Part shown: positions 10,822 through 21,781 of the stretch, piece after piece
Layout: every line of letters begins with the position of its first letter
Position numbering within the stretch: position 1 is the stretch's first letter
DNA from: Bifidobacterium [indicum] DSM 20214 = LMG 11587
Lineage (GTDB): Bacteria; Actinomycetota; Actinomycetes; Actinomycetales; Bifidobacteriaceae
Assembly: GCF_000706765.1 (NCBI RefSeq)
Contig: NZ_CP006018.1
Coordinates: 1,054,001 to 1,118,000 of the forward strand
Length of the DNA: 64,000 nt
Direction: 5' to 3'
Position numbers and translations under genes: made by a program
Notes under the pieces: model-generated
The model's input: the letters and a program-made list of their open reading frames with translations, nothing else
Databases searched by the model: none
What the model was told of the DNA's origin: nothing

Positions 10822-11397
10822 ATGATCAATGACGACGAATGGCTGGTGGTCATTGACCGCCAGGAGGTATTCGCCCACAATGAGTGGTCCCGTTGGGCCT
10901 GCTCCGACGGCGCCTACTATCAGACCGACAAGAACTACACTCGCCTCGCCAAGGCATACGGCAACCGCGTTGCCTACACCAGATACATTGCGCCGCAACC
11001 GCCAAAAGGTGCCTGGGTGGAATACATGAAGGACTGGTCGGAATTTCTGGTGGCCCCCGACGATCCCATGTACGACCTCACACCAGAGACCGCTGAACTC
11101 GCCAAGGGGCACCCAATCGTCTCACTCAGCACTTACGGCAAGTGGGGGCCGGAATTGCAGACGGCAGTGGAAGGATCCCAGAGGATAGCCCTTTGTGGTG
11201 TTGCCACCGATGCCTGTGTGTTGCAGACAGCCTTGGCGGCCGCAGACCAAGGCATTGCCGTTCGGTTGGCAGCCGATGCCTGCGCCGGATCTACGTTGGA
11301 GAATCACAAGCTGGCAATCGATACGATGGCTCTGTTCACACCGTTAATCACCATCACAGATACCGACTCGCTGCTGAGGGAGCGCCAAGCAGACTGA
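10822..11397 (+). CDS. Isochorismatase-fold cysteine hydrolase
   Basis: 191 aa. The catalytic triad is readable: Asp in LVVIDRQEVF (about residue 12), Lys in LSTYGKWGPEL and Cys in CGVATDACVLQTA. This fold includes nicotinamidase, N-carbamoylsarcosine amidase and ureidoacrylate/biuret hydrolases. It sits last in the cluster with ADP-ribosylglycohydrolase, PfkB kinase and NCS1 permease, suggesting amide or carbamoyl hydrolysis of the imported compound or of a nicotinamide-like base. The ribosome-binding site AAGGAAA directly follows a hairpin. The exact substrate is unknown. Confidence 0.85.
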   Translation: MINDDEWLVVIDRQEVFAHNEWSRWACSDGAYYQTDKNYTRLAKAYGNRVAYTRYIAPQPPKGAWVEYMKDWSEFLVAPDDPMYDLTPETAELAKGHPIVSLSTYGKWGPELQTAVEGSQRIALCGVATDACVLQTALAAADQGIAVRLAADACAGSTLENHKLAIDTMALFTPLITITDTDSLLRERQAD

Positions 11398-11684
11398 CCT
11401 TAGACACTTCTTCATTTATCCGTGAGTTGGGCTCTTCTCGTCGCGAGATAGAAAGGACGCAACTGCACCAACTCACCGCACTGCCGCTACCTGATACAGA
11501 TAAATCAGCCAGATAGTCCATTCCCCTGACTCGCCGCGCCAGCCCTATTACCATCGACATCAATGGTCTGAACGATATCGCCAGTTATCGTTTGTATACC
11601 TACATTGGGACCATGTAATTCTGGCTAACGTTCGCATGCCAGTGGTGGACGACAACTTTATGATTCCTTCAGACTCTCGCTCTA

Positions 11685-12369
11685 TCAACTATCCCTTTCT
11701 AAGCGCTTAGAGTAAGCATCGAAGATATGCCTATCCATAAGAAAATGGGCTCTTTTAAAATAGGGATTTTCCTTGGCCTCAAAACCATCTTGGAGGGTCA
11801 ACGGAACGGTGTACACGTAAAAACGGAAGCAATTGACAATCATGCTCCAATATAGGAGCCTGTAGTCCACTTTGCTGCGTTCATCTTCATAAGCATGCAC
11901 CACTTTCGCAGCACGATTCCAGTTAGGTTTGCAGGCAGACTCGAAAGAGAAGGACATTGCAGCTATAGACAAGTCAAATAGAATTGATCCGTAATAGCAA
12001 TCATCAAAATCGATAACACCTTTCAGGTCCCCGTCTTCAGAAACAACTACATTGCCGGGATGAATATCAGCGTGTACGACTCCCTTCTCAAGCTCAGGCG
12101 AACCTTGTGCATCCCTAAGCATGATCCACGAATCGTATATATCACTTTGGCCAGGTATCGATTCCTTTAATCTACTCATTTCGGACACGCTGACTACGGA
12201 TCAGCAGGTTGTTTCTCTCTCTGAGGAGCAAAGCGCTTCAATCCAATATGCAGTCGAGCAATAAAGGAGCCTGTTTGCGCCGCAATCTTGTCATACGGCT
12301 GCTCGATTACCATTTCGTCGAAGGAATTCAGGAAAACAAAACAACAATCATCTTTCTGCTCTTTCAAGC
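11685..12369 (-). pseudogene. aph-like phosphotransferase, interrupted by a tRNA-derived 23-bp insert
   Basis: The C-terminal part (frame from GTG 12188 to 11685, 167 aa) has the APH/choline-kinase motifs VVHADIHPGNVVV (Brenner motif) and GVIDFDD. The N-terminal part lies upstream in another frame (about 12369 to a TAG at 12196-12194) and contains FDEMVIEQPYDKIAAQTG and FIARLHIGLKRFAPQ, the segment that normally precedes the Brenner motif. The frames are separated exactly at 12189-12211, a 23-bp copy of part of tRNA-Arg. Removing those 23 bp joins the halves in frame (...PQREK-VSEMSRLK...). The extreme N-terminus (ATP-loop region) is also missing. Base composition is AT-rich. Confidence 0.75.
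12189..12211 (+). repeat. 23-bp copy of the tRNA-Arg(ACG) anticodon arm, inside the aph-like gene
   Basis: Identical over 23 bp to the minus-strand tRNA at 21732-21754. It covers the complete anticodon stem-loop (stem GCTGA/TCAGC, loop CTACGGA) plus the first bases of the variable region. Flanking bases differ on both sides. Its orientation is opposite to the tRNA gene, so the two copies form an inverted pair 9.5 kb apart. It sits exactly at the frame break of the aph-like pseudogene, consistent with an attachment-site scar. Confidence 0.85.
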
Positions 12370-13035
12370 CTATAAAATTTCCACTCTTGAATTATCGCTT
12401 TCAACTACATATAAAGGCGATCCTGTTTTTTCCTTAACTACGGTTCCAGGAAAACGCTGAGCCCCTAACCGCAACGATCCATTATTCGACCTTATCTGAT
12501 ACCCGTTTTCTGGTTGAAAGCTGTCAGTTAAAACTACTCTTGACGATGAAGCGGAAACGGAACACTCTTCTTTCACCTTTAACGATTTTGAGACGACGCT
12601 GCTATTTGTAACTGAAAATGTCGCAAACTCGCATGAACTGTACTGTATCCGCAAGGACCCGGCAGAAACCTTGCAACCGAGTTTCCTGACATCTATGCCA
12701 GCGATACGAGCCGAACCGGATGAGACCTGTACATTCAACTCACAAAGTGCGTTTTGTTCCCGTAAAGCAATCACCAGCAAGGGATCAGCCCACAACCAGG
12801 GCAGTGAAGGTCTTCCCTTCCTGAATTCACTATTCCAGAAGGGAATCCGCTGAGTGATGGCCAGAGCATCTCCACGCGTCTTAGTCGCGGTGAAACTGCT
12901 TTCGTCGCAAGAACGGAAATAAATCCCAGGATATTTCGAAGATAATACAAGAACTTGTATATCGCCGGTAGACACCGATATCGAGTTAATCTGATCCAAT
13001 TCCATGTACTTGTGGAGGCTTCTTACATCCATCAT
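12370..13035 (-). CDS. DUF4097-like beta-repeat protein
   Basis: 221 aa from the ATG at 13035, which overlaps the permease stop (ATGA); a longer frame to 13209 lies inside the permease and is not expected. The product lacks a signal peptide and membrane segments and consists of regularly spaced short strands (NVQVSSGSARIAG, CKVSAGSLRIQYSS, SVSASSSRVVLTD, IRSNNGSLRLG), the pattern of DUF4097/LiaG-type beta-helix proteins. These are often found with ABC transporters in cell-envelope stress operons. It is third in the minus-strand operon ATPase-permease-this gene. Confidence 0.7.
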   Translation of the reverse strand: MMDVRSLHKYMELDQINSISVSTGDIQVLVLSSKYPGIYFRSCDESSFTATKTRGDALAITQRIPFWNSEFRKGRPSLPWLWADPLLVIALREQNALCELNVQVSSGSARIAGIDVRKLGCKVSAGSLRIQYSSCEFATFSVTNSSVVSKSLKVKEECSVSASSSRVVLTDSFQPENGYQIRSNNGSLRLGAQRFPGTVVKEKTGSPLYVVESDNSRVEIL

Positions 13036-13817
13036 GTTCTTCTCTTCCCCTTGAAGGCTTGTGCCGCCGCCCCGAAACAGATGACTGCAAGGATGAAAGC
13101 GACAATTATGGACACTGCTGTCCCTTTGCTCATTCCGACGCCTACTGCCTGCCTGGCACCTTCGACAATGTAAGTAAGCGGGTTGAATCTTGATAAGATT
13201 CTCAGCCAATGGGGGCCGAAATCTACAGGTATGAGGATGCCTGATAGCAGGATAAGCGGAAGCAGCACGGCATTAAAAATGGACGACAAAGCATCCTCCT
13301 GCTTGGTGAGGATTGCCACAAGGTAGGACAGGGAGGAAAAGCTGACTGCTGTAAGGAATACCAGGAGCATATCGACAACAAGCCCCAATCCACTGGTTCT
13401 ATAGCCGAGGGGATAAGCCAGCAGGAGCACAATAATCATTTCCGCTACTACAACCAGGGAGTCCTTCACCACTTTCCCCGCCAGCATTGCCGACCGGCTT
13501 ACCGGCGTGGCGAACAAGCGTTCAAAAGCTCCCGACCGGTACTCCGTAACCAAGGAAATACCAGCGAAGGAACTGCTGAAGATGGCCAGCTGGACGAACA
13601 AAGCTGGAACGAATACCCCATATGCACCCCCCGCACCCCCTGAGCTTATTTCCGGTATACCGGTCAATGTTGGCCCAAAGAGGAAAAGATACAGCACAGG
13701 CTGTGCAAGAGATCCAATGACAAAATAAGGACTTTTCAATGTCGCTTTCATCTCATGGGCAAAGGTAAAGAACATACTCCGTAGCCAGTATTGTTGAGAC
13801 ACTCCGGTGGTATTCAT
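13032..13817 (-). CDS. ABC-2 type transporter permease
   Basis: 261 aa with about six hydrophobic segments and the ABC-2/DrrB signature region ERLFATPVSRSAMLAGKVVKD. NPLTYIVEGARQ near the C-terminus is typical of drug or polysaccharide export permeases. It overlaps the ATPase gene by ATGA (13814-13817) and the DUF4097-like gene by ATGA (13032-13035), so all three are translationally coupled. AT-richer than the arginine region. Confidence 0.87.
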   Translation of the reverse strand: MNTTGVSQQYWLRSMFFTFAHEMKATLKSPYFVIGSLAQPVLYLFLFGPTLTGIPEISSGGAGGAYGVFVPALFVQLAIFSSSFAGISLVTEYRSGAFERLFATPVSRSAMLAGKVVKDSLVVVAEMIIVLLLAYPLGYRTSGLGLVVDMLLVFLTAVSFSSLSYLVAILTKQEDALSSIFNAVLLPLILLSGILIPVDFGPHWLRILSRFNPLTYIVEGARQAVGVGMSKGTAVSIIVAFILAVICFGAAAQAFKGKRRT

Positions 13818-14788
13818 ACTGCAGTCTCTTTTCCAGTGATCGTTAGAAAAGCCTTGTTTAGGCTGCCTTTTTCCATATCGACCGACTCGATGTTGATCTT
13901 GCGACTTTCCAAAAAACTCGCCACAACGGGAATGAGTTCTGCAGCCGCATTGGTTCGATAGCGAATAAGATAACGCCGGTTTTCTGTATGCTCCCAGGTA
14001 ATTGAAGCCACATCAGGGAACGTTGCAATGCCCGCAACCGCTTTTTCAATACCCATGCCAAAGACGGTAAATGTCACCGTACTCAAGGCGTACTTACGCG
14101 AGAGTTCATGAGGCGTGCCCTCCTCGATCTTGATTCCACCATCAATAATCGTTATTTGGTCAGCAAGCTGCTCAGCCTCTTCTATATAGTGGGTCGTCAC
14201 CACAAATGAGGTCCCGCGAGTATCCCTAATACGTAGAATCAAATCGATTAACTCCTGGCGCGCATCTGGGTCAAGTCCTACAGACGGCTCATCCAAAAAG
14301 GCGATGATCGGTTCGTTCATCAGCCCCATAGCAATATCGACGCGACGCCTCTGACCTCCTGACAAGTCGCCGGCCTTCTTATTGAAGAGATCAGGGATAC
14401 CAAGTTGGTCCAAAAGCGCACAGGCCCTAGACCATGATTGCGTCTTGTCTAGCCCAAAGCACCTTCCCTGCAAAATCATCTCGTCAGCCACTACTGATTC
14501 ATCCATCAATGTTCCAGCCTGAGGAACATAACCAATCTTTTGGCGCACTTGGCGGACCTGTTTCAAGACATCGTACCCACCTATGACAGCATTTCCTTGG
14601 TCTGGCTTCAACAACGTCGTCAAAATCCTCAACGCTGTACTCTTCCCCGCCCCATTGGGCCCCAACAAGCCCAATATCTGTCCTTGAGAAAGCGAAAAAG
14701 AAAGATTCGAGAGAGCTATTTTCTCGGATCCTCTATACCTATATCTCTTCGAGATATTGTCGACTTCCACTACGAGTTCTCCGGTCAT
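13814..14788 (-). CDS. ABC transporter ATP-binding protein (DrrA/daunorubicin-resistance type)
   Basis: 324 aa. Walker A GPNGAGKST, signature DLSGGQRRRVD, Walker B IIAFLDEPSVGLD, switch His in VVTTHYIEEAEQLAD. After ~220 residues a C-terminal extension typical of DrrA-like ATPases follows. It should energise the permease encoded next to it to export a drug, lipid or peptide. It is divergent from a PadR repressor gene across a 256-bp AT-rich region. Confidence 0.9.
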   Translation of the reverse strand: MTGELVVEVDNISKRYRYRGSEKIALSNLSFSLSQGQILGLLGPNGAGKSTALRILTTLLKPDQGNAVIGGYDVLKQVRQVRQKIGYVPQAGTLMDESVVADEMILQGRCFGLDKTQSWSRACALLDQLGIPDLFNKKAGDLSGGQRRRVDIAMGLMNEPIIAFLDEPSVGLDPDARQELIDLILRIRDTRGTSFVVTTHYIEEAEQLADQITIIDGGIKIEEGTPHELSRKYALSTVTFTVFGMGIEKAVAGIATFPDVASITWEHTENRRYLIRYRTNAAAELIPVVASFLESRKINIESVDMEKGSLNKAFLTITGKETAV

Positions 14789-15044
14789 ACGAGTTTCCCT
14801 CTTACTTCTTCAGTGAACAATCGCACGGTTTCTTCCATGGACTCCCTGGATGCTGATCCGAAATCCAATTGGAACAGGGTCCTTCTTGTTTCTTTCGAAG
14901 ATTCCATTGGTCCTAACACGGTCTCATTTATATTAGGCAAAATTGACTATACGCTTATTTTTTATAATAGCAATGCGGAGAAAGATACACTCAATGTTAG
15001 CTTTTGTTATTAGAGCAGCCGACTATTAGATATATGGAGATAAA

Positions 15045-15602
15045 GTGGGCGCAAACAGCACAAAACTGCTGGTTCTCGGCGTGGTTACTCTGCGAGAACC
15101 GACATACGGATACGAGATTGAAAAAGAGCTAAAAAACTGGAATGCGGATAAATGGGCCGGCATTGCAAGAGCTTCTGTATACAACCAGTTAAAGAGCCTG
15201 ACAAAAAACGGTATGTTGAAGTTTGATTCAACCATAAAGCCGGAAAATCGGCCTACACAGTATCTATATCGCATAACAGAACAGGGAAAGAAAGAGTTCT
15301 ATTCCCTTCTACGAGAACAGCTCAATGATCATGATCCACAGCCGGGCGACCTTATGCCAATACTGTCATTTATCCCTTTTCTACCCCAAGAAGAAATATC
15401 AAACGCCTGTCTAAAACGAATACGGTACTATTCTTCGTTTATTGAATCATTCGACAGTGAAATGGGGAAATGGTTTCCACCGGAGACAGCGAGAATATCG
15501 TACATAAAAGAAATCTTCTATCGCGAAAAAGCTGCCATAGTTGCAGAAAAAACCTGGCTGATGGACTTTCTCAACAGGCTTCCGTCATATTACAACGCAT
15601 AG
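15045..15602 (+). CDS. PadR-family transcriptional regulator
   Basis: 185 aa, GTG start with GGAG spaced 5 nt. The N-terminal winged helix reads LVLGVVTLREPTYGYEIEKEL, then ASVYNQLKSLTKNGML and YRITEQGKKEFYSLL; the C-terminal half is helical, as in the longer subfamily (VirR/PadR-s1). Divergent from the ABC-2 exporter operon, so probably its local repressor, relieved by a drug or envelope signal. TTGACT and TATAAT elements occur at 14943 and 14963, but their 14-bp spacing is short. Confidence 0.88.
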   Translation: MGANSTKLLVLGVVTLREPTYGYEIEKELKNWNADKWAGIARASVYNQLKSLTKNGMLKFDSTIKPENRPTQYLYRITEQGKKEFYSLLREQLNDHDPQPGDLMPILSFIPFLPQEEISNACLKRIRYYSSFIESFDSEMGKWFPPETARISYIKEIFYREKAAIVAEKTWLMDFLNRLPSYYNA

Positions 15603-15657
15603 TTCTCCCGATAGAGTAACGAGTCAACGGCCGATGCCTTGCTCGTAGGAGCCAAGA

Positions 15658-15834
15658 ATGAGGCTTACCGGTGAAGGAGATTCCGGCATGAAACACCAAC
15701 TGATATTCCAGGCGGCCTGGCTCACGGCCGTGTTCGCGGCCTACATGCTGCTCAACTGCCTACTGGGCGTGTGCCTGGCCTTGCTGTGGCGATGGGTGGA
15801 CGCCCCCCTTCTTAACGCCATCCAGCCATCATGA
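15658..15834 (+). CDS. Small single-pass membrane protein
   Basis: 58 aa from ATG 15658 (AGGAG upstream), or 48 aa from the in-frame ATG 15688, which also has AAGGAG in front. One long hydrophobic stretch (AAWLTAVFAAYMLLNCLLGV and CLALLW) follows a short polar N-terminus, and the end is DAPLLNAIQPS. Composition is GC-rich, unlike the AT-rich PadR gene upstream. No family recognised. Its stop overlaps the next ATG (TCATGACC). Confidence 0.5.
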   Translation: MRLTGEGDSGMKHQLIFQAAWLTAVFAAYMLLNCLLGVCLALLWRWVDAPLLNAIQPS

Positions 15835-15917
15835 CCAAGGTCATCAACCTTATTGCCGTAGCAGGCCTTGTTGGCTCGTGGATCAAACCCGCACACCACC
15901 CCGCTTCGTTGATGTAG
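15831..15917 (+). CDS. Tiny ORF overlapping the small membrane protein
   Basis: 28 codons, starting at the ATG that overlaps the previous stop. The first half is hydrophobic (VINLIAVAGLVGSW), the second basic and His/Pro-rich. Overlap suggests coupling, but the length makes chance likely. No family recognised. Confidence 0.2.
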   Translation: MTKVINLIAVAGLVGSWIKPAHHPASLM

Positions 15918-15988
15918 CGAGGCATATTCGTTAAAGGCGATTTTCCTCCCGCAAATCCTGATCTCCGGTCAGCAACTCTTGTTTGTGC

Positions 15989-16516
15989 TCATCGACCATG
16001 TTCACGAAGATAGTCCTCTGCCTGCCGGTCATCGACCGCTAAAGCTGCAGTCAAGGTAAGAGCCAGGTTTTCGGGCGTCTGAATCCTGGCCTCGATGGAG
16101 TTCCACGGCATACGGACCGGGGCGGAGGTGGAACCTGGCCGCAGTTTCTCACAGGCTCTGACCATCGCTGTAATCTGATTTTCGGTAACTGCCAGGCTCA
16201 GGCCTACTGTCGACTGTATAGTGGTCTGGGAATTGCCTGGGTTGGAATCACTTTTGCAGATAAGTACATCCTGGAAGGCCCAGCGGCGCAAATGGATCAG
16301 AACGCCCGGCATAGCGTACAGGCTGATGAAGCCCAGTCCCTTGGTCCAGAATTCCTCTGATTCCTCTAGACTGCCACTTTCCAAGGTCATAAACATGGGC
16401 ATGGAGTAGATGCCTCGATACGGTTCCGGTGGCGCGACAGCCGCACCCGGATGCGGAACAGGACTGATACTTGCAGCATCATATGTTGAATTTGCTGATT
16501 GAATATAGCTAGACAT
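15989..16516 (-). CDS. VOC (glyoxalase/bleomycin-resistance) family protein
   Basis: 175 aa; GGGGG ribosome-binding site before ATG 16516. After a ~40-residue polar leader, the VOC beta-alpha-beta-beta-beta pattern appears: MPMFMTLESGSLEESEEFWTKGLGF, then VLIHLRRWAFQDVLI and VGLSLAVTENQI. It lies 70 bp downstream of the MerR/TipAS gene on the same strand, so a co-transcribed antibiotic-binding or sequestering role is plausible. Classical metal-binding residues are not evident. Enzymatic function unknown. Confidence 0.75.
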   Translation of the reverse strand: MSSYIQSANSTYDAASISPVPHPGAAVAPPEPYRGIYSMPMFMTLESGSLEESEEFWTKGLGFISLYAMPGVLIHLRRWAFQDVLICKSDSNPGNSQTTIQSTVGLSLAVTENQITAMVRACEKLRPGSTSAPVRMPWNSIEARIQTPENLALTLTAALAVDDRQAEDYLREHGR

Positions 16517-16586
16517 GGTTGCCCCCTTTTATGGTTAGGTTTGCGAAACAGTTAGTGAGGTAGGGAACTGCTATTGCGCCTCTCCG

Positions 16587-17357
16587 TTATTCCCATTTAG
16601 CGGTGGCAGGGTCTATTCCGTGAACACGCGCGGCTGTTTCGATGGCGGTCAGCATCCACTCGGCTAAACCAGGCTCGAACTGTTCATAGTGGCAATTGAA
16701 TCGAGGGTCAGCCACATACATGCGCCCTAGCATCAGATGCATGGATGGGGTCACATGGAACCATGCCAAAGCCCGCCGGTGCTCCTCAATCAGCTCTAAA
16801 GCTTCATCGCCAGTCGGATCGAGGCCGTTCCGCTTGGATTGCCCGAGTCTTGCTTCCACTTCTCCCAGGTGGGCCATATCCCGTTGCCACCGTGCCCGGT
16901 TGCGAGAGGTTTTCCTCTCTGCATACTCCAACCACTGCTGACTAACGCCCCAACGTTGCCAGGCTTCCTGGAGCTGATGGCTCTGCTGCTTCCCCTCTGC
17001 GATGGCAACTAGACGGTCCACCCCACCTAAGGATCCTTCGAGGCGACGAATCTTCTTCTCCATTTCGGAACGTTGGTTTCGTAGTTCCTTCAACGCCAAG
17101 GAAGTTGAAGAGCTCAGCAGACTCTTAATCTGTCGAGTATCGAATCCCATTTCTCGATACGTCAACACCCGTTCGAGACGTGCGATATCCTCCTGCCGGT
17201 ACTGCCGGTAACCGGCCGGCCCACGCATCGGCGAAAGCAACCCGACCGCCTCCCAATGACGCAGCATCCGTTGGGTGACCCCCATCAGTTCAGCGGTCTC
17301 ACCGATACTTAGCCACGGTTGGCCGTAATCGCCTTCATAATCGTCATCTCGCGTCAT
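16587..17357 (-). CDS. MerR-family regulator with TipAS-like antibiotic-recognition domain
   Basis: 256 aa. N-terminal winged helix: LSIGETAELMGVTQRMLRHWEAVGLL, then GYRQYRQEDIARL. A dimerisation coiled coil follows at about residues 85-110. The C-terminal part, LIEEHRRALAWFHVTPSMHLMLGRMYVADPRFNCHYE and LAEWMLTAIETAAR, matches the TipAS/albicidin-binding helical domain that traps thiopeptide-like drugs. Its own promoter has the distinctive MerR 19-bp spacer (17364-17394). The ATG lies 6 nt after the -10, so the mRNA is probably leaderless. The downstream VOC gene is the likely co-regulated effector. Confidence 0.85.
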   Translation of the reverse strand: MTRDDDYEGDYGQPWLSIGETAELMGVTQRMLRHWEAVGLLSPMRGPAGYRQYRQEDIARLERVLTYREMGFDTRQIKSLLSSSTSLALKELRNQRSEMEKKIRRLEGSLGGVDRLVAIAEGKQQSHQLQEAWQRWGVSQQWLEYAERKTSRNRARWQRDMAHLGEVEARLGQSKRNGLDPTGDEALELIEEHRRALAWFHVTPSMHLMLGRMYVADPRFNCHYEQFEPGLAEWMLTAIETAARVHGIDPATAKWE

Positions 17358-17363
17358 ATTCCG

Positions 17364-17394
17364 ACCCTAAACCCTGACATCTTGTCAAGGTCAA
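17364..17394 (-). promoter_or_regulatory. MerR-type promoter with 19-bp spacer and operator dyad
   Basis: On the minus strand: -35 TTGACC (17394-17389), a 19-bp spacer, -10 TAGGGT (17369-17364). The spacer contains the dyad TGACA-AGA-TGTCA. A 19-bp spacer with a centred dyad is the hallmark of promoters twisted open by activated MerR proteins. The start codon follows the -10 by 6 nt. Confidence 0.75.
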
Positions 17395-17694
17395 ATTGGC
17401 AGGGAACCATACTCTTTATTGAAGAACCGGCAAGTACTGAGTAAGCACAGATTGCACTCCTGCTCAATAGCAATCGGAATAATCTGACTCTTAGCACTAA
17501 TCGAAGGCAAACCGCTCTCGAACCTCGTAGTAGTGGAGAGTCCTCGACGGTCAAATCCGCACACCCATGCCACAGATATGCTCGATGGCAAAATTCGGAC
17601 ACTCGCACTTCTTGTATTGAGATTACTGGTTTCTCATAACACAAGGGGAAGGCAGCAATTACGGACCTTGGCCTTCAAACCCGCAGGCAGTCTA
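17395..17694. other. Gene-less spacer between MerR promoter and hamB 3' end
   Basis: Short frames on the minus strand have no ribosome-binding site and no recognisable similarity. Composition shifts from GC-rich to AT-rich across it, marking the left edge of the Hachiman block. I see no transposase or integrase fragment. Confidence 0.35.
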
Positions 17695-20217
17695 CTATCC
17701 AAGTAGAATACGGCTGACGGCCTGCTCTGTCTCGTGCGAGAAACTAATTGCGGCGAGCTTTTCCTTAGTCACACCAGCAATTTCACTATTCTCCGACATT
17801 ACGAATGCATCCTCGGCTTTCTTTTGAAGTTCAATAGCGACGTATCTCTCAAAACCTAATTTTTCCAGTTCTATGATTAACGGGTCGTTAGTTCCGTAGT
17901 TCAAGTAGTCTCCCCACCCACTTGAAGCCTGATCAGTCAGCTGCATGTAGTTACTAACGTATGTCTTAATGGTAAAGCGGACGATATTTTCCAGATCTCT
18001 CATCACATCATTGATAACCGAGTTAACATGTACAGAATTACTGCCATCGAATTCTACCCAGTTGATATAATCCGTGCATATCTTTTTCTTTGTTTTACTG
18101 TAGAAGTTTAAAGTACTTTGTATAATTAGATTCAGCGGTCGAGAATTGAGCCATTCGCTCATTAGAACTGTGTAATAAGGAAGATTCTGTCGGTTTCCCA
18201 GTTTTTTTGAGTCCTCTTCCTCTGACCAGTTATAGTAATCAAACATTGCGTGCAAAACTTTTGAACACGATTCGTAATCGTACGTAGTCGGCAAGCTATA
18301 TCGATCACCAGATACATAAATTTGTTGCTGATACTTGGGCTTAATCGAAATAGCAGACATAAGAATACTGCTTGGCACATCAATTGCCTCAACCTTGCGA
18401 AGGACCTCGGGCATGTCCGGGTTCTTCTTTGCGAAAGTCGTATGGAGGACAGAATCAACTCGCGCATTCTGCTGATATGCAAAAATCGTGGCATAACTTG
18501 ACAGCTGTCGTTTTTCTTTAATCGACACTTTCTTTCGGGTTAACGGTTTATCTAGCAACACGTTACCGATATTCTGATAAAACCGATTGTCGCCAGTAAT
18601 TATAGCGGTTTCTAAAGGACACACCTCTTTCGTAAGCAAATCACTGACCGTTTTTTCAGACCAGTCGTCTTCCTTACTCCGAACAACAATAACGTTCCCA
18701 GACAGTTCTTTCGACAGTCTCCCGGCTCTACCAATTAAATTCCTAAAGGAAAGTTGATCCATCCTGCTTCGGCCAACTTTTTTTGAGAGCACAAAGAGAT
18801 TCTTGGCAGGTAAGTTGACCCCTTCAAGCAACGTCGAGGTAGTAAATAGGGAATGAATAACTCCGCTCTTAAAGGCATCTTCAACCCTATTACGCACCAA
18901 TTGTGGCAAGGCACCGAAGTGAACAGCAACACCCTTCTCTACGTAGTTAGCTAAATCATACTGCTCATGGATTGTCTCACGGATAAATTTAGCTAGACGG
19001 ACTCTATCTGGTGACTTATCAGCAGGAAGTCGTTTCGCCTCGCACTCTGCTTCACGTAGAGTCGTCCCTACAGAATTACAATATACTAGCGATTGTCCTT
19101 TGTTCGAGAAGTGGTCAAAAACCTCATTTACTCCCGACCAAGGAAGGGGCAACTCAGCATAGCTACTTTCGTTCTCGGATATGAAGTCAAAATACTGCCA
19201 TGCTTTACCTTTAACAAAATCTAAAAAGAAAACGTTTTGCGTGACACTCAAATCCTGCACGCGTGATACTTCCTCAGCCGAGTTTCCTACTAGAGATAAG
19301 AAGATATCAGGGTTTGGCACGCAGGGCGAGGCAAAGAATAACTTGACGCTTTTTTGTTTCGCCAATGAAATTGCATGGTAGAACAGTGGCGATCTTTCAT
19401 CATCGGATATGGTCTTTTGCGCCTCGTCCACAATCAAGATATCAATTACCGGATTTTCCTTACTGAAGTAGGAAACTAATCGCTCAGGCGTAAATACAAA
19501 AATAAACTTGTTCTTCGCAAATAGCAAGGGCACTTCTGGACTGGTTATAATCTTATACTGTCTGTCTTTGCTCCCTCTATTAAGCAATTCAACCTTTTCA
19601 TTCAAGTCATTCACCACCTGCGTTATCAATGCTCGAGTGGGAACTAAAAAGGCGAAATTCTGGCTAGAATTCGCTCCGTGAATCATGCGTTCCACATATT
19701 CATCAAAAAGAAATGACTTTCCAAATGATGTGCCAGCAGAAAAGCTGAAGTGGTTCGAGTTCATCATTTTATTCAGTATCTTGAATTGCTGATCGGTTAA
19801 AACATGCTTACCATCTGCTGTCTTTTGGATTTCTCTTTTGATGCCGCCATCAATCACAAACTCTAAATCTTGGGCGTCGTTCCCTTTTTCCTCGACGAAC
19901 GAAATTGAAGGAAATAAACCCAGTTTTGTCAGAACACTCTTCGAAAATAGCTTGAAGGCATTATTGTTCATATATTCGTCGTAAAGAACAGAAATGATTT
20001 TTAGTGCCACATTTTTGTTGATTGGAGTCTTTGACCGGGACAAGATATCAGCAAACCGCAAAATATCTGCGAACTCTTTATCTTCCAATCTTGCAGGTTC
20101 TTCTCCAAACAGTTGGGAGCCATAGTTCTTTTGAGCTTTTTCCAACAACTCATAAAGATAGACATCGTTCATAGCCTGTTCATTAAGCAAATCGGTTACA
20201 GTTTTTTGTGCATTCAC
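17695..20217 (-). CDS. hamB: Hachiman anti-phage system helicase HamB
   Basis: 840 aa superfamily 2 helicase. Walker A-like motif I FSAGTSFGKS (about residues 159-168), motif Ia FLVPTRALI, motif II as VDEAQ (about 263-267), motif V STLLEGVNLP, and motif VI as FRNLIGRAGR (about 491-500). About 340 residues of helical C-terminal region follow. The gene overlaps hamA by ATGA (20214-20217). In Hachiman, HamB surveys DNA and holds the HamA nuclease inactive until it meets damaged or phage DNA, then releases it to degrade DNA. AT-rich, unlike the housekeeping genes, so acquired by transfer. The partner gene makes the assignment firm. Confidence 0.88.
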   Translation of the reverse strand: MNAQKTVTDLLNEQAMNDVYLYELLEKAQKNYGSQLFGEEPARLEDKEFADILRFADILSRSKTPINKNVALKIISVLYDEYMNNNAFKLFSKSVLTKLGLFPSISFVEEKGNDAQDLEFVIDGGIKREIQKTADGKHVLTDQQFKILNKMMNSNHFSFSAGTSFGKSFLFDEYVERMIHGANSSQNFAFLVPTRALITQVVNDLNEKVELLNRGSKDRQYKIITSPEVPLLFAKNKFIFVFTPERLVSYFSKENPVIDILIVDEAQKTISDDERSPLFYHAISLAKQKSVKLFFASPCVPNPDIFLSLVGNSAEEVSRVQDLSVTQNVFFLDFVKGKAWQYFDFISENESSYAELPLPWSGVNEVFDHFSNKGQSLVYCNSVGTTLREAECEAKRLPADKSPDRVRLAKFIRETIHEQYDLANYVEKGVAVHFGALPQLVRNRVEDAFKSGVIHSLFTTSTLLEGVNLPAKNLFVLSKKVGRSRMDQLSFRNLIGRAGRLSKELSGNVIVVRSKEDDWSEKTVSDLLTKEVCPLETAIITGDNRFYQNIGNVLLDKPLTRKKVSIKEKRQLSSYATIFAYQQNARVDSVLHTTFAKKNPDMPEVLRKVEAIDVPSSILMSAISIKPKYQQQIYVSGDRYSLPTTYDYESCSKVLHAMFDYYNWSEEEDSKKLGNRQNLPYYTVLMSEWLNSRPLNLIIQSTLNFYSKTKKKICTDYINWVEFDGSNSVHVNSVINDVMRDLENIVRFTIKTYVSNYMQLTDQASSGWGDYLNYGTNDPLIIELEKLGFERYVAIELQKKAEDAFVMSENSEIAGVTKEKLAAISFSHETEQAVSRILLG

Positions 20218-21143
20218 GATGTAAGTTCTTTCGTTAGTTCTCTTCTTGTCTTAGCCAAGTCCGTAAACGGCATCAAGTAGACATAAAAATGCTTCCCTTT
20301 CAGCTTCTGGTTCTCAATCTGTTTTTGGATTGTGCCCACTAGTCCCCTTATCTGCTCAGACACAAATGATTTAATCCAAGTCTCAAACTCATCTTCGTCC
20401 AAGTTCTCTTTTTCTTTATCAACCTTTATTTCAAATCCAATAAAAATCCCGAAAGTCCTGGTAAATTTGATGCCCTTCAATTTCTCAGCACCTCGCCGAG
20501 AAGGATAGATTACTTGCTTAATTGCTTCAACAGCATCTTTTTCACTGAGCTTTTCATCATCAATATGCTGGCTGATAAGCTGCCCTTCCCAGTCTTTTTT
20601 CTCTTTTAAAGGGCCACTGCCAAGGAAACTATTGATTGACTTAAACGCTGCGCGAAATCCAGCAGTCAGATTCTTGTAGAGCTTTGACTCTCCGAATATC
20701 AGGTGATATCTGCCATTATCCAATTTAAGAAGATGTACCCCATCACAGCCTTTAATATAATCTTGAGAAGAAGTCTTCAATGACATCTTAGAGAGGATTT
20801 TTGGTGCTTTAAGGTGTCCCTCGAGAAGAACATAAAGGATAAGCTCTCCCAATTCCCCTTTATTGCGCGCATAATCTTTGAAAGCCCTCCTAGCAGCCTG
20901 CGTCATCTGCTGATACTGCTTATGCTCAAGATACTCGTCTACGCTTTTACGACTGAGGACATAGTAGGTCAACGGGTTAAAAAGAACATCCTTCATCCCT
21001 GAGTAGTCAAATTCATGTCCATCCAGCTTTGGCATGAATATCCTCATTTTTGTGGGTTTTAGTTCATTTTCAAATAAACTAATGTCCTCTAATTGCTCGA
21101 ACCAATTCACCGCAGCCTGGGCATCTTCCGAGAACTCGACCAT
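20214..21143 (-). CDS. hamA: Hachiman anti-phage system nuclease HamA (DUF1837)
   Basis: 309 aa, start ATG 21143. The DUF1837 core reads RNKGELGELILYVLLEGHL (about residues 93-111), KGCDGVHLL with Asp134, and FGESKLYK with Glu152-x-Lys154. This Glu...Asp...ExK arrangement is the PD-(D/E)XK-type nuclease site of HamA. The C-terminal Lys/Glu-rich region is family-typical. Coupled to hamB by a 4-bp overlap. HamA is the effector of Hachiman and degrades DNA on activation, causing phantom-cell or abortive defence. Strongly AT-rich. Located about 560 bp from the 3' end of tRNA-Arg. Confidence 0.88.
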   Translation of the reverse strand: MVEFSEDAQAAVNWFEQLEDISLFENELKPTKMRIFMPKLDGHEFDYSGMKDVLFNPLTYYVLSRKSVDEYLEHKQYQQMTQAARRAFKDYARNKGELGELILYVLLEGHLKAPKILSKMSLKTSSQDYIKGCDGVHLLKLDNGRYHLIFGESKLYKNLTAGFRAAFKSINSFLGSGPLKEKKDWEGQLISQHIDDEKLSEKDAVEAIKQVIYPSRRGAEKLKGIKFTRTFGIFIGFEIKVDKEKENLDEDEFETWIKSFVSEQIRGLVGTIQKQIENQKLKGKHFYVYLMPFTDLAKTRRELTKELTS

Positions 21144-21704
21144 GAGGAATCCTTCGCAAACAGTATATGCTACAAATATCTAGATAATCATAAACTTTGT
21201 TCTCGTATATCACCGTATTTAGATTCATCTCATGAGCACATCTAACAGCTCTCCTAGCACCTACAACTGTGCCATCCGTCGACAGAATCAGGCCTGCACA
21301 ACCGGAAGCAGGACAGTGCGCAAACCGGTCTATCTCAGAGGCTCAACCGATAGTTCGGATAGTAGCGCTTAGCAGACGGATTTAATGCTCCAGTCCTGAC
21401 CCTAAAAAAGTCTAAGTAGACAAGACCTTATTCAGAGTCGTTCCTGAACAAATTAACCGAACTACCCACAGACGAATATCTTCCTAAGGGATTAATTGGA
21501 GCAGCCAAGACACACCAGGCAGAATCATCTTTGGCACCCCGCCAGAGGAATCCTATCTCACTTCAAATTCGGAAGGGAGGTTCGTTAAGTAAGGCCTGTT
21601 TCGGTGGGCTTTTGTCACACAAATGTCACCAAAAATCAGCTCCCGGAAGAACCAACGTGATAAGAGAGAAGCCCTACAGCCGTTGTAGCCGTAGGACTTC
21701 CGCG
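21144..21704. other. 561-bp gene-less stretch between hamA and tRNA-Arg
   Basis: No supported ORF. The part next to hamA is AT-rich and should carry the ham promoter. The part next to the tRNA (about 21530-21660) is mixed in composition and contains sequence such as GTCACACAAATGTCACC, reminiscent of remnants left beside tRNA-integrated elements. An imperfect stem (21671-21693, arms CCTAC/GTAGG) lies just past the tRNA 3' end and may terminate its transcript. I found no integrase. Confidence 0.4.
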
Positions 21705-21781
21705 TGGTGCGCCAGACAGGATTCGAACCTGCAACCTGCTGATCCGTAGTCAGCTGCTCTAATCCATTGGGCTACTGGCGC
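21705..21781 (-). tRNA. tRNA-Arg (anticodon ACG)
   Basis: On the minus strand the 7-bp acceptor stem GCGCCAG/CTGGCGC pairs 21781-21775 with 21715-21709. The discriminator is A (21708) and the CCA end is encoded (21707-21705). The anticodon arm GCTGA-CTACGGA-TCAGC gives anticodon ACG. The T arm contains GGTTCGAATCC. It reads CGN arginine codons after A34-to-inosine editing. Its 3' end faces the Hachiman block, the usual side for islands inserted at tRNA genes. Confidence 0.95.
21732..21754 (-). repeat. tRNA-Arg copy of the 23-bp repeat
   Basis: Anticodon arm of tRNA-Arg(ACG), identical to 12189-12211 but in inverted orientation. See the repeat entry at that site. Confidence 0.85.

What the first reader, a model, noticed from the sequence alone, without database searches (positions are those of the whole stretch)
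12189..12211. 23-bp piece of the tRNA-Arg anticodon arm inserted in an aph-like gene; its removal restores the frame
An exact 23-bp copy of tRNA-Arg(ACG) (21732-21754), containing the complete anticodon stem-loop, sits precisely at the frameshift of an aph-like gene. Deleting just these bases joins the two halves in frame. Anticodon loops are crossover sites of tyrosine integrases. The two copies are inverted relative to one another, so they do not simply flank an excisable island. Either a scar of an element using tRNA-Arg as attB or an unusual tRNA-fragment insertion. The in-frame fit has a one-in-three chance of being accidental.
Basis: seen in the sequence. Interest (0 to 1): 0.75.

Follow-up and report, generated by a model that had tools for sequence, protein, structure and literature searches.

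The report
Inverted tRNA snippet in dead gene
In a small Bifidobacterium-like genome, a 23-letter piece of an arginine tRNA gene lies backwards inside the wreck of a kinase-like gene, within the stretch beside that tRNA where mobile DNA keeps landing; it is probably a small copying scar rather than a working landing site.

Summary
Window 12189-12211 is an exact inverted copy of tRNA-Arg(ACG) nt 28-50. It is the only exact repeat of 18 bp or more in the window and one of two copies in the 1.73-Mb genome. The aph-like gene, however, looks like a relic: its first part is short, hits no family, and the start of the kinase domain seems to be missing.

tRNA-Arg is a real island hotspot in this genus. 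The window's island DNA is not found at the same place in four relatives that share both flanks. One of them holds a 39.8-kb integrase-bearing insert with direct tRNA repeats. The window copy fails three published tests for an island end: orientation, internal fragment, integrase.

I favour a short illegitimate copy, by template switching or repair, of the neighbouring anticodon hairpin. A G025 island end has this same loop inverted, a published template-switch signature. An unrelated protein gene matches the same tRNA over 21-25 nt, so coincidence is not excluded.

The parts
12189..12211 (+). 23-bp exact copy of tRNA-Arg(ACG) nt 28-50 (anticodon arm, variable loop, start of T stem), inverted relative to the tRNA gene
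   Evidence: 2 copies in own genome at up to 2 mismatches
21732..21754 (-). the same 23 bp inside the tRNA gene (presumed source)
21705..21781 (-). tRNA-Arg(ACG) gene, target of island integration in this genus
   Evidence: ARAGORN; islands in relatives
11685..12188 (-). C-terminal part of an APH-fold phosphotransferase relic (167 codons, HADIHPGN and IDFDD motifs)
   Evidence: Pfam APH E 9.4e-16, profile 160-217 of 239; best NCBIfam model homoserine kinase, 46.5 bits, far below its cut-off 271
12212..12391 (-). 60-codon open stretch, putative middle part of the same relic
   Evidence: weak: 58th of 5002 and 34th of 1691 in a profile test; only PDB hit a kinase, E 0.47; no Pfam/NCBIfam hit
11376..21658 (.). 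variable island between isochorismatase gene and tRNA-Arg, replaced by unrelated DNA in same-species genome G014; G+C 0.38-0.57 in 500-bp windows
   Evidence: shared flank may run to 11504, judged from G010
20214..21143 (-). hamA of a Hachiman defence system in the island
   Evidence: PF08878 E 6.2e-59; PADLOC HamA E 1.5e-108
17695..20217 (-). hamB helicase of the Hachiman system
   Evidence: PADLOC HamB E 8.1e-286
10822..11397 (+). isochorismatase-family gene, left flank of the hotspot
   Evidence: PF00857 E 2.8e-27; same flank in G003, G008, G010, G014

Best explanation
The 23 bp are a short inverted copy of the neighbouring tRNA-Arg anticodon arm that landed in a decaying, apparently 5'-truncated phosphotransferase gene. 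The setting is the island hotspot beside that tRNA. The likeliest mechanism is one illegitimate copying event about 9.5 kb away from the source: a nascent strand or broken end at the relic used the hairpin-forming anticodon arm as template, then returned. It left no target duplication and no detectable junction homology. Shown: identity, orientation, uniqueness, hotspot, absence of an integrase in the island. Inferred: that it was inserted rather than native, and the template-switch mechanism. I expect no function.
For: Only exact repeat of 18 bp or more in the window. The source is the tRNA at the edge of the same hotspot. Each reading frame is closed by a stop inside the 23 bp. No target duplication or shift homology of 1-8 bp at the junctions. 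The 23-nt strand folds as a hairpin, z -2.9, although its 63-nt context does not stand out, z -0.55. In G025 the same anticodon arm, next to a broken integrase at an island end, has its 7-nt loop inverted between 7-bp arms, against 5 bp in the tRNA. Spacer inversion with arm homogenisation is described for polymerase template switching at short inverted repeats; the one case there that combined both began from a 5-bp arm (PMC8604942, passages). This suggests that the hairpin is prone to strand-switch copying in the genus.
Against: No junction microhomology, which template switching usually needs. The G025 case is an in-place loop inversion, not an insertion in trans, and its form was found in 1 of 189 genomes. 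Its two extra arm bases may be chance, since that flank of an att site comes from the element. [quoted passage not shown] No sister strain without the 23 bp was available; the only same-species genome held, G014, lacks the whole island. Relatives have about 70 residues between the two motifs flanking the break, the window about 50 (inference), so loss of sequence at the site is possible. A coding gene matches the same tRNA over 21-25 nt.
Confidence: 0.5

Rival explanations
1. Attachment-site remnant: the 23 bp are the core of an old att site of an integrase-bearing element that used tRNA-Arg(ACG), moved into its present inverted position by later rearrangement and deletion in the island.
For: Elements with this target exist in the genus: G010 insert with att nt 26-77 beside an integrase, and displaced 3' halves in G011 (nt 39-77), G012 (nt 39-75) and G025. 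The copy starts at nt 28, close to where the G010 identity block starts (nt 26). On the tRNA-sense strand the window and G025 distal copies share the same 19 nt and both lie about 10 kb downstream of the tRNA.
Against: Inverted and internal, no integrase in the island. It fails the orientation, internal-fragment and integrase filters of Islander (PMC4383910, passages). The flank does not resemble the G010 element arm much beyond chance (434 and 69 of 4000 random island stretches as good under two scorings), and apart from the core nothing near it matches G025 by blastn at E 1 or better.
Confidence: 0.25
2. Chance: a run of native bases of a decaying gene happens to equal the tRNA anticodon arm, and the frame change comes from other small lesions.
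For: In six genomes of the genus (G008, G012, G018, G020, G022, G025) one 1671-aa protein gene holds 21-25 nt identical to the same tRNA, read in frame as QQLTTDQ. A weak self-alignment of that protein (E 0.018) shows no gap there, so long coincidences with this sequence seem to occur.
Against: Expected 2.7e-7 for this tRNA in the window by composition. The copy lies in the island next to the very same tRNA. Stops of two frames fall inside it. A native reading would need two further indels (inference). That the protein-gene string itself came from a tRNA is not excluded.
Confidence: 0.13
3. Recombination junction: the 60-codon stretch is not part of the aph relic; the 23 bp mark a junction between two unrelated acquired pieces.
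For: The stretch has no family hit, no credible plasmid hit (best E 4), and its profile rank is only 58th of 5002 and 34th of 1691.
Against: Its best alignment falls in the expected region before the catalytic motif, and its only PDB hit is a kinase. The C part of known identity scored even lower in the same test (157th), so the test has little power.
Confidence: 0.1

Closest known systems
tRNA-targeted genomic islands of tyrosine integrases (Islander type, anticodon-centred attP sites)
   Same: Same kind of target and hotspot; the copied block starts at the anticodon arm; such islands are found at this tRNA in relatives
   Different: Window copy is inverted, internal, without integrase, and inside a gene relic
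Template-switch mutations at short inverted repeats (spacer inversion and arm homogenisation; PMC8604942, yeast)
   Same: Hairpin-forming source; the G025 att core shows a spacer inversion with longer arms
   Different: Window event is a 23-bp copy in trans about 9.5 kb away without junction homology
APH-fold kinases: homoserine kinase (NF003558) / Pfam APH
   Same: C part has the catalytic and IDFDD motifs
   Different: Truncated and broken; below the cut-off of every NCBIfam model listed, resistance enzymes included

Membership tests
tRNA-gene island attachment fragment (Islander criteria) | fragment in the same orientation as the tRNA gene | tested here: not met
   inverted; criterion
tRNA-gene island attachment fragment (Islander criteria) | fragment reaches an end of the tRNA (3' half displaced) | tested here: not met
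   nt 28-50 of 77 only; G010 26-77, G011 39-77 and G012 39-75 reach the 3' end or nearly so
tRNA-gene island attachment fragment (Islander criteria) | integrase gene in the interval | tested here: not met
   own PF00589 matches only at 634776, 643358, 812867 of the genome; no tblastn match of the G010 integrase or the G025 integrase fragment in the window's 17.8 kb
tRNA-gene island attachment fragment (Islander criteria) | length of the interval 2-200 kb, fragment on the 3' side of the tRNA | tested here: met
   about 9.5 kb, 3' side
templated insertion by template switching | inserted bases copied from a nearby sequence | tested here: met
   exact 23 of 23, possible source about 9.5 kb away; copying itself is inferred
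templated insertion by template switching | short homology at the switch points | tested here: not met
   0 bp at both junctions as they now stand; the pre-insertion sequence is unknown
templated insertion by template switching | ancestor without the bases | not testable with these tools
   no strain or close homologue with this gene found
IS200/IS605 or RAYT hairpin mobilisation | Y1 transposase in the genome | tested here: not met
   0 matches in own genome; controls rang in 5 of 14
aminoglycoside or macrolide resistance phosphotransferase | score over a resistance-family cut-off | tested here: not met
   best resistance model MphL 24.6 bits against cut-off 612; only the C part could be tested

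The most novel reading that the evidence does not exclude
The anticodon hairpin of a tRNA gene used as integration site is itself a hotspot of strand-switch copying. It inverts its own loop at island ends (G025) and is copied backwards into neighbouring island DNA (window), seeding inverted att-like cores that an integrase could later recognise.
Probability: 0.15. Interest if true: 0.5.

Novelty: new member of a known kind. Interest (0 to 1): 0.3.

Why it matters
If it is a templated copy, it shows how tRNA attachment cores can be scattered in inverted form near their gene, where island finders discard them as false positives. The G025 loop inversion gives a second, cleaner case at the same hairpin. 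Otherwise it is a small scar in a dead gene, with no functional consequence to be expected.

Tried and rejected
Rejected: (1) simple excisable island between the two copies: they are inverted, and inversion between them would split what looks like the genome's only tRNA-Arg with this arm (inference). (2) Shared att arm with the G010 element: flank similarity not significant. (3) Wide scatter of the arm in the genus: of 37 places of the 17-mer in 27 genomes, 28 are tRNA genes by flank or ARAGORN, 6 are one orthologous protein gene, and 3 are displaced copies (window, G010, G025). (4) Multi-copy 23-mers elsewhere in the family: 54 places in 43 of 189 genomes. I looked at 50: 47 lie in tRNA genes by flank or ARAGORN, 1 (G079) in a tRNA stretch next to Ns, and 2 do not (window, G010 distal); 4 places (G088, G162, G163, G164) were not fetched. 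(5) Y1 transposase. (6) The 23-mer in viral contigs: one hit, by its flanks inside a tRNA gene. The G010 integrase has 3 relatives in viral contigs, which begin within 10 bases of the integrase, so no att site could be seen. (7) Homologues of the aph relic on plasmids, phages and viral contigs: none. (8) Papers: seven searches; no listing described such a copy. PMC10259446 (passages) reports that the sole B. indicum prophage region it called holds an isochorismatase and a purine-cytosine permease, which fits the left flank here (PF00857 and PF02133). That link is inference.

My test of the first part of the relic has low power: the known C part scored lower still. One search's search step gave no output and was rerun. 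One search listed no ORF at the length asked; one search translated the frame instead.

Full report
Setting. The window is part of a single-contig genome of 1,734,546 bp. No call names its organism. A held paper on bee-gut prophages reports that its sole B. indicum prophage region contains an isochorismatase and a purine-cytosine permease (PMC10259446, passages), and both genes form the left flank here. This identification is inference.

The observation. 12189-12211 equals nt 28-50 of the tRNA-Arg(ACG) gene at 21705-21781 and is inverted relative to it. It is the only exact repeat of 18 bp or more in the window, and the genome holds no third copy at up to two mismatches. There is no target duplication and no 1-8 bp shift homology at the junctions.

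The gene. The C part (11685-12188) is a clear APH-fold fragment (Pfam APH 9.4e-16). Its nearest curated model is homoserine kinase, at 46.5 bits against a cut-off of 271, and the resistance models listed score far below theirs. The first part (12212-12391) is weakly supported as the same gene: in a profile of 21 relatives' segments it ranks 58th of 5002 sequences (itself, the C part and 5000 shuffles) and 34th of 1691 (itself and 1690 partly overlapping window translations), aligning at the expected place. Its single PDB hit is a kinase at E 0.47. The same test ranked the undoubted C part only 157th, so it decides little. The beginning of the kinase domain seems to be absent: the frame is closed by TAA at 12392-12394, next to the end of an ORF with a sub-threshold DUF4097 match. 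So the gene looks like a relic whatever the 23 bp did. Beyond the window itself no close homologue was found in the genus: the DNA search returned only the 23-mer and, in G010, its 43-bp extension, and the protein search returned distant matches in 6 other genus genomes. Elsewhere I saw 15 loci in genome contigs, 45 of 189 family genomes at E 0.001, own included, and 4 of 394 class genomes at E 1e-7, own included. There were none on plasmids, phages or viral contigs. An empty-site comparison was therefore not possible.

The hotspot. In same-species genome G014 the flanks are 97-99% identical but 11376-21658 is replaced by unrelated DNA. I examined about 18 kb downstream of tRNA-Arg (55 kb for G010) in 20 of the 27 genus genomes. 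The isochorismatase gene lies beyond the island in 5 of these 20 (G000, G014, G003, G010, G008), 4.8 to 50 kb from the tRNA; in the other 15 it was not in the stretch held. The window's island has no blastn match at the same place in the other four. Displaced tRNA 3' halves in direct orientation occur in G010 (nt 26-77), G011 (nt 39-77), G012 (nt 39-75) and, degenerate, G025 (nt 28-75). In G010 a 39.8-kb insert carries a tyrosine integrase next to the displaced copy. Integrase fragments of a second type lie beside the tRNA in G025, with relatives in G008, G011 and G012. G010-type integrases occur in 19 of 189 family genomes, some beside what look like 3' halves of other tRNAs (by eye).

Is the window copy an att site? 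By the published Islander filters (PMC4383910, passages) it fails three: orientation, internal fragment, integrase in the interval. The flank on the C side resembles the G010 element arm slightly, but 434 (or 69 with another scoring) of 4000 random island stretches do as well. I keep this as the main rival at 0.25.

A second odd copy. In G025 the displaced site next to a broken G010-type integrase (four stops inside) has the 7-nt anticodon loop inverted between 7-bp arms, against 5 bp in the tRNA, followed by a degenerate direct tRNA 3' half. The two extra arm bases may be chance, because that flank comes from the element. Spacer inversion with arm homogenisation is what polymerase template switching does at short inverted repeats (PMC8604942, abstract and passages). 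[quoted passage not shown] A search for this loop-inverted, right-flanked form found it in 1 of 189 family genomes, up to one mismatch, so it is rare. The window and G025 copies share 19 nt on the tRNA-sense strand and sit 9.6 and 10.1 kb from the start of the tRNA, but nothing else near them is alike.

A warning control. The 17-nt arm search of 27 genus genomes gave 37 places. Six of them are one orthologous site in a 1671-aa Ig-like protein gene, where 21 (three genomes), 23 (two) or 25 nt (one) equal the tRNA, read in frame as QQLTTDQ. A weak self-alignment of that protein (E 0.018) shows no gap there. The name Ig-like is mine, from reading the sequence, not from a call. Long identity to this tRNA can thus arise without visible insertion, against naive odds. 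I set the chance rival at 0.13 for this reason.

Verdict. A real, inverted tRNA-arm copy in what looks like a dead gene within a tRNA island hotspot. The best reading is an illegitimate templated copy; an att remnant and chance are not excluded; no function is expected. The hotspot also carries a complete-looking Hachiman pair.

Noticed in passing
17695-21143: Hachiman defence pair hamB and hamA on the 3' side of tRNA-Arg, in the variable island (PADLOC E 8.1e-286 and 1.5e-108).
   Followed up: partly
L180:2262-2312 (G025; also L115): Displaced tRNA-Arg 3' half next to a broken integrase whose anticodon loop is inverted between 7-bp arms: looks like a template-switch spacer inversion at an att core.
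   Followed up: partly
L030:15079-16731 with L032:14884-14960 (G010): 39.8-kb insert in tRNA-Arg(ACG) with direct att repeats (nt 26-77) and a 496-aa tyrosine integrase beside the distal copy.
   Followed up: partly
L144-L149, position 2501 on the coding strand: A 1671-aa protein gene shared by six relatives holds 21-25 nt identical to tRNA-Arg(ACG) in frame (QQLTTDQ); a weak self-alignment shows no insertion there.
   Followed up: partly
L028:7154-18324 (G014): Same-species genome has different DNA at the hotspot, with ORFs that look like phage antirepressors and a LysM-like protein (by eye).
   Followed up: no
12370-17357: Island also carries an ABC transporter pair, a PadR regulator and a MerR regulator with TipAS domain, perhaps a drug-responsive export cluster.
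   Followed up: no
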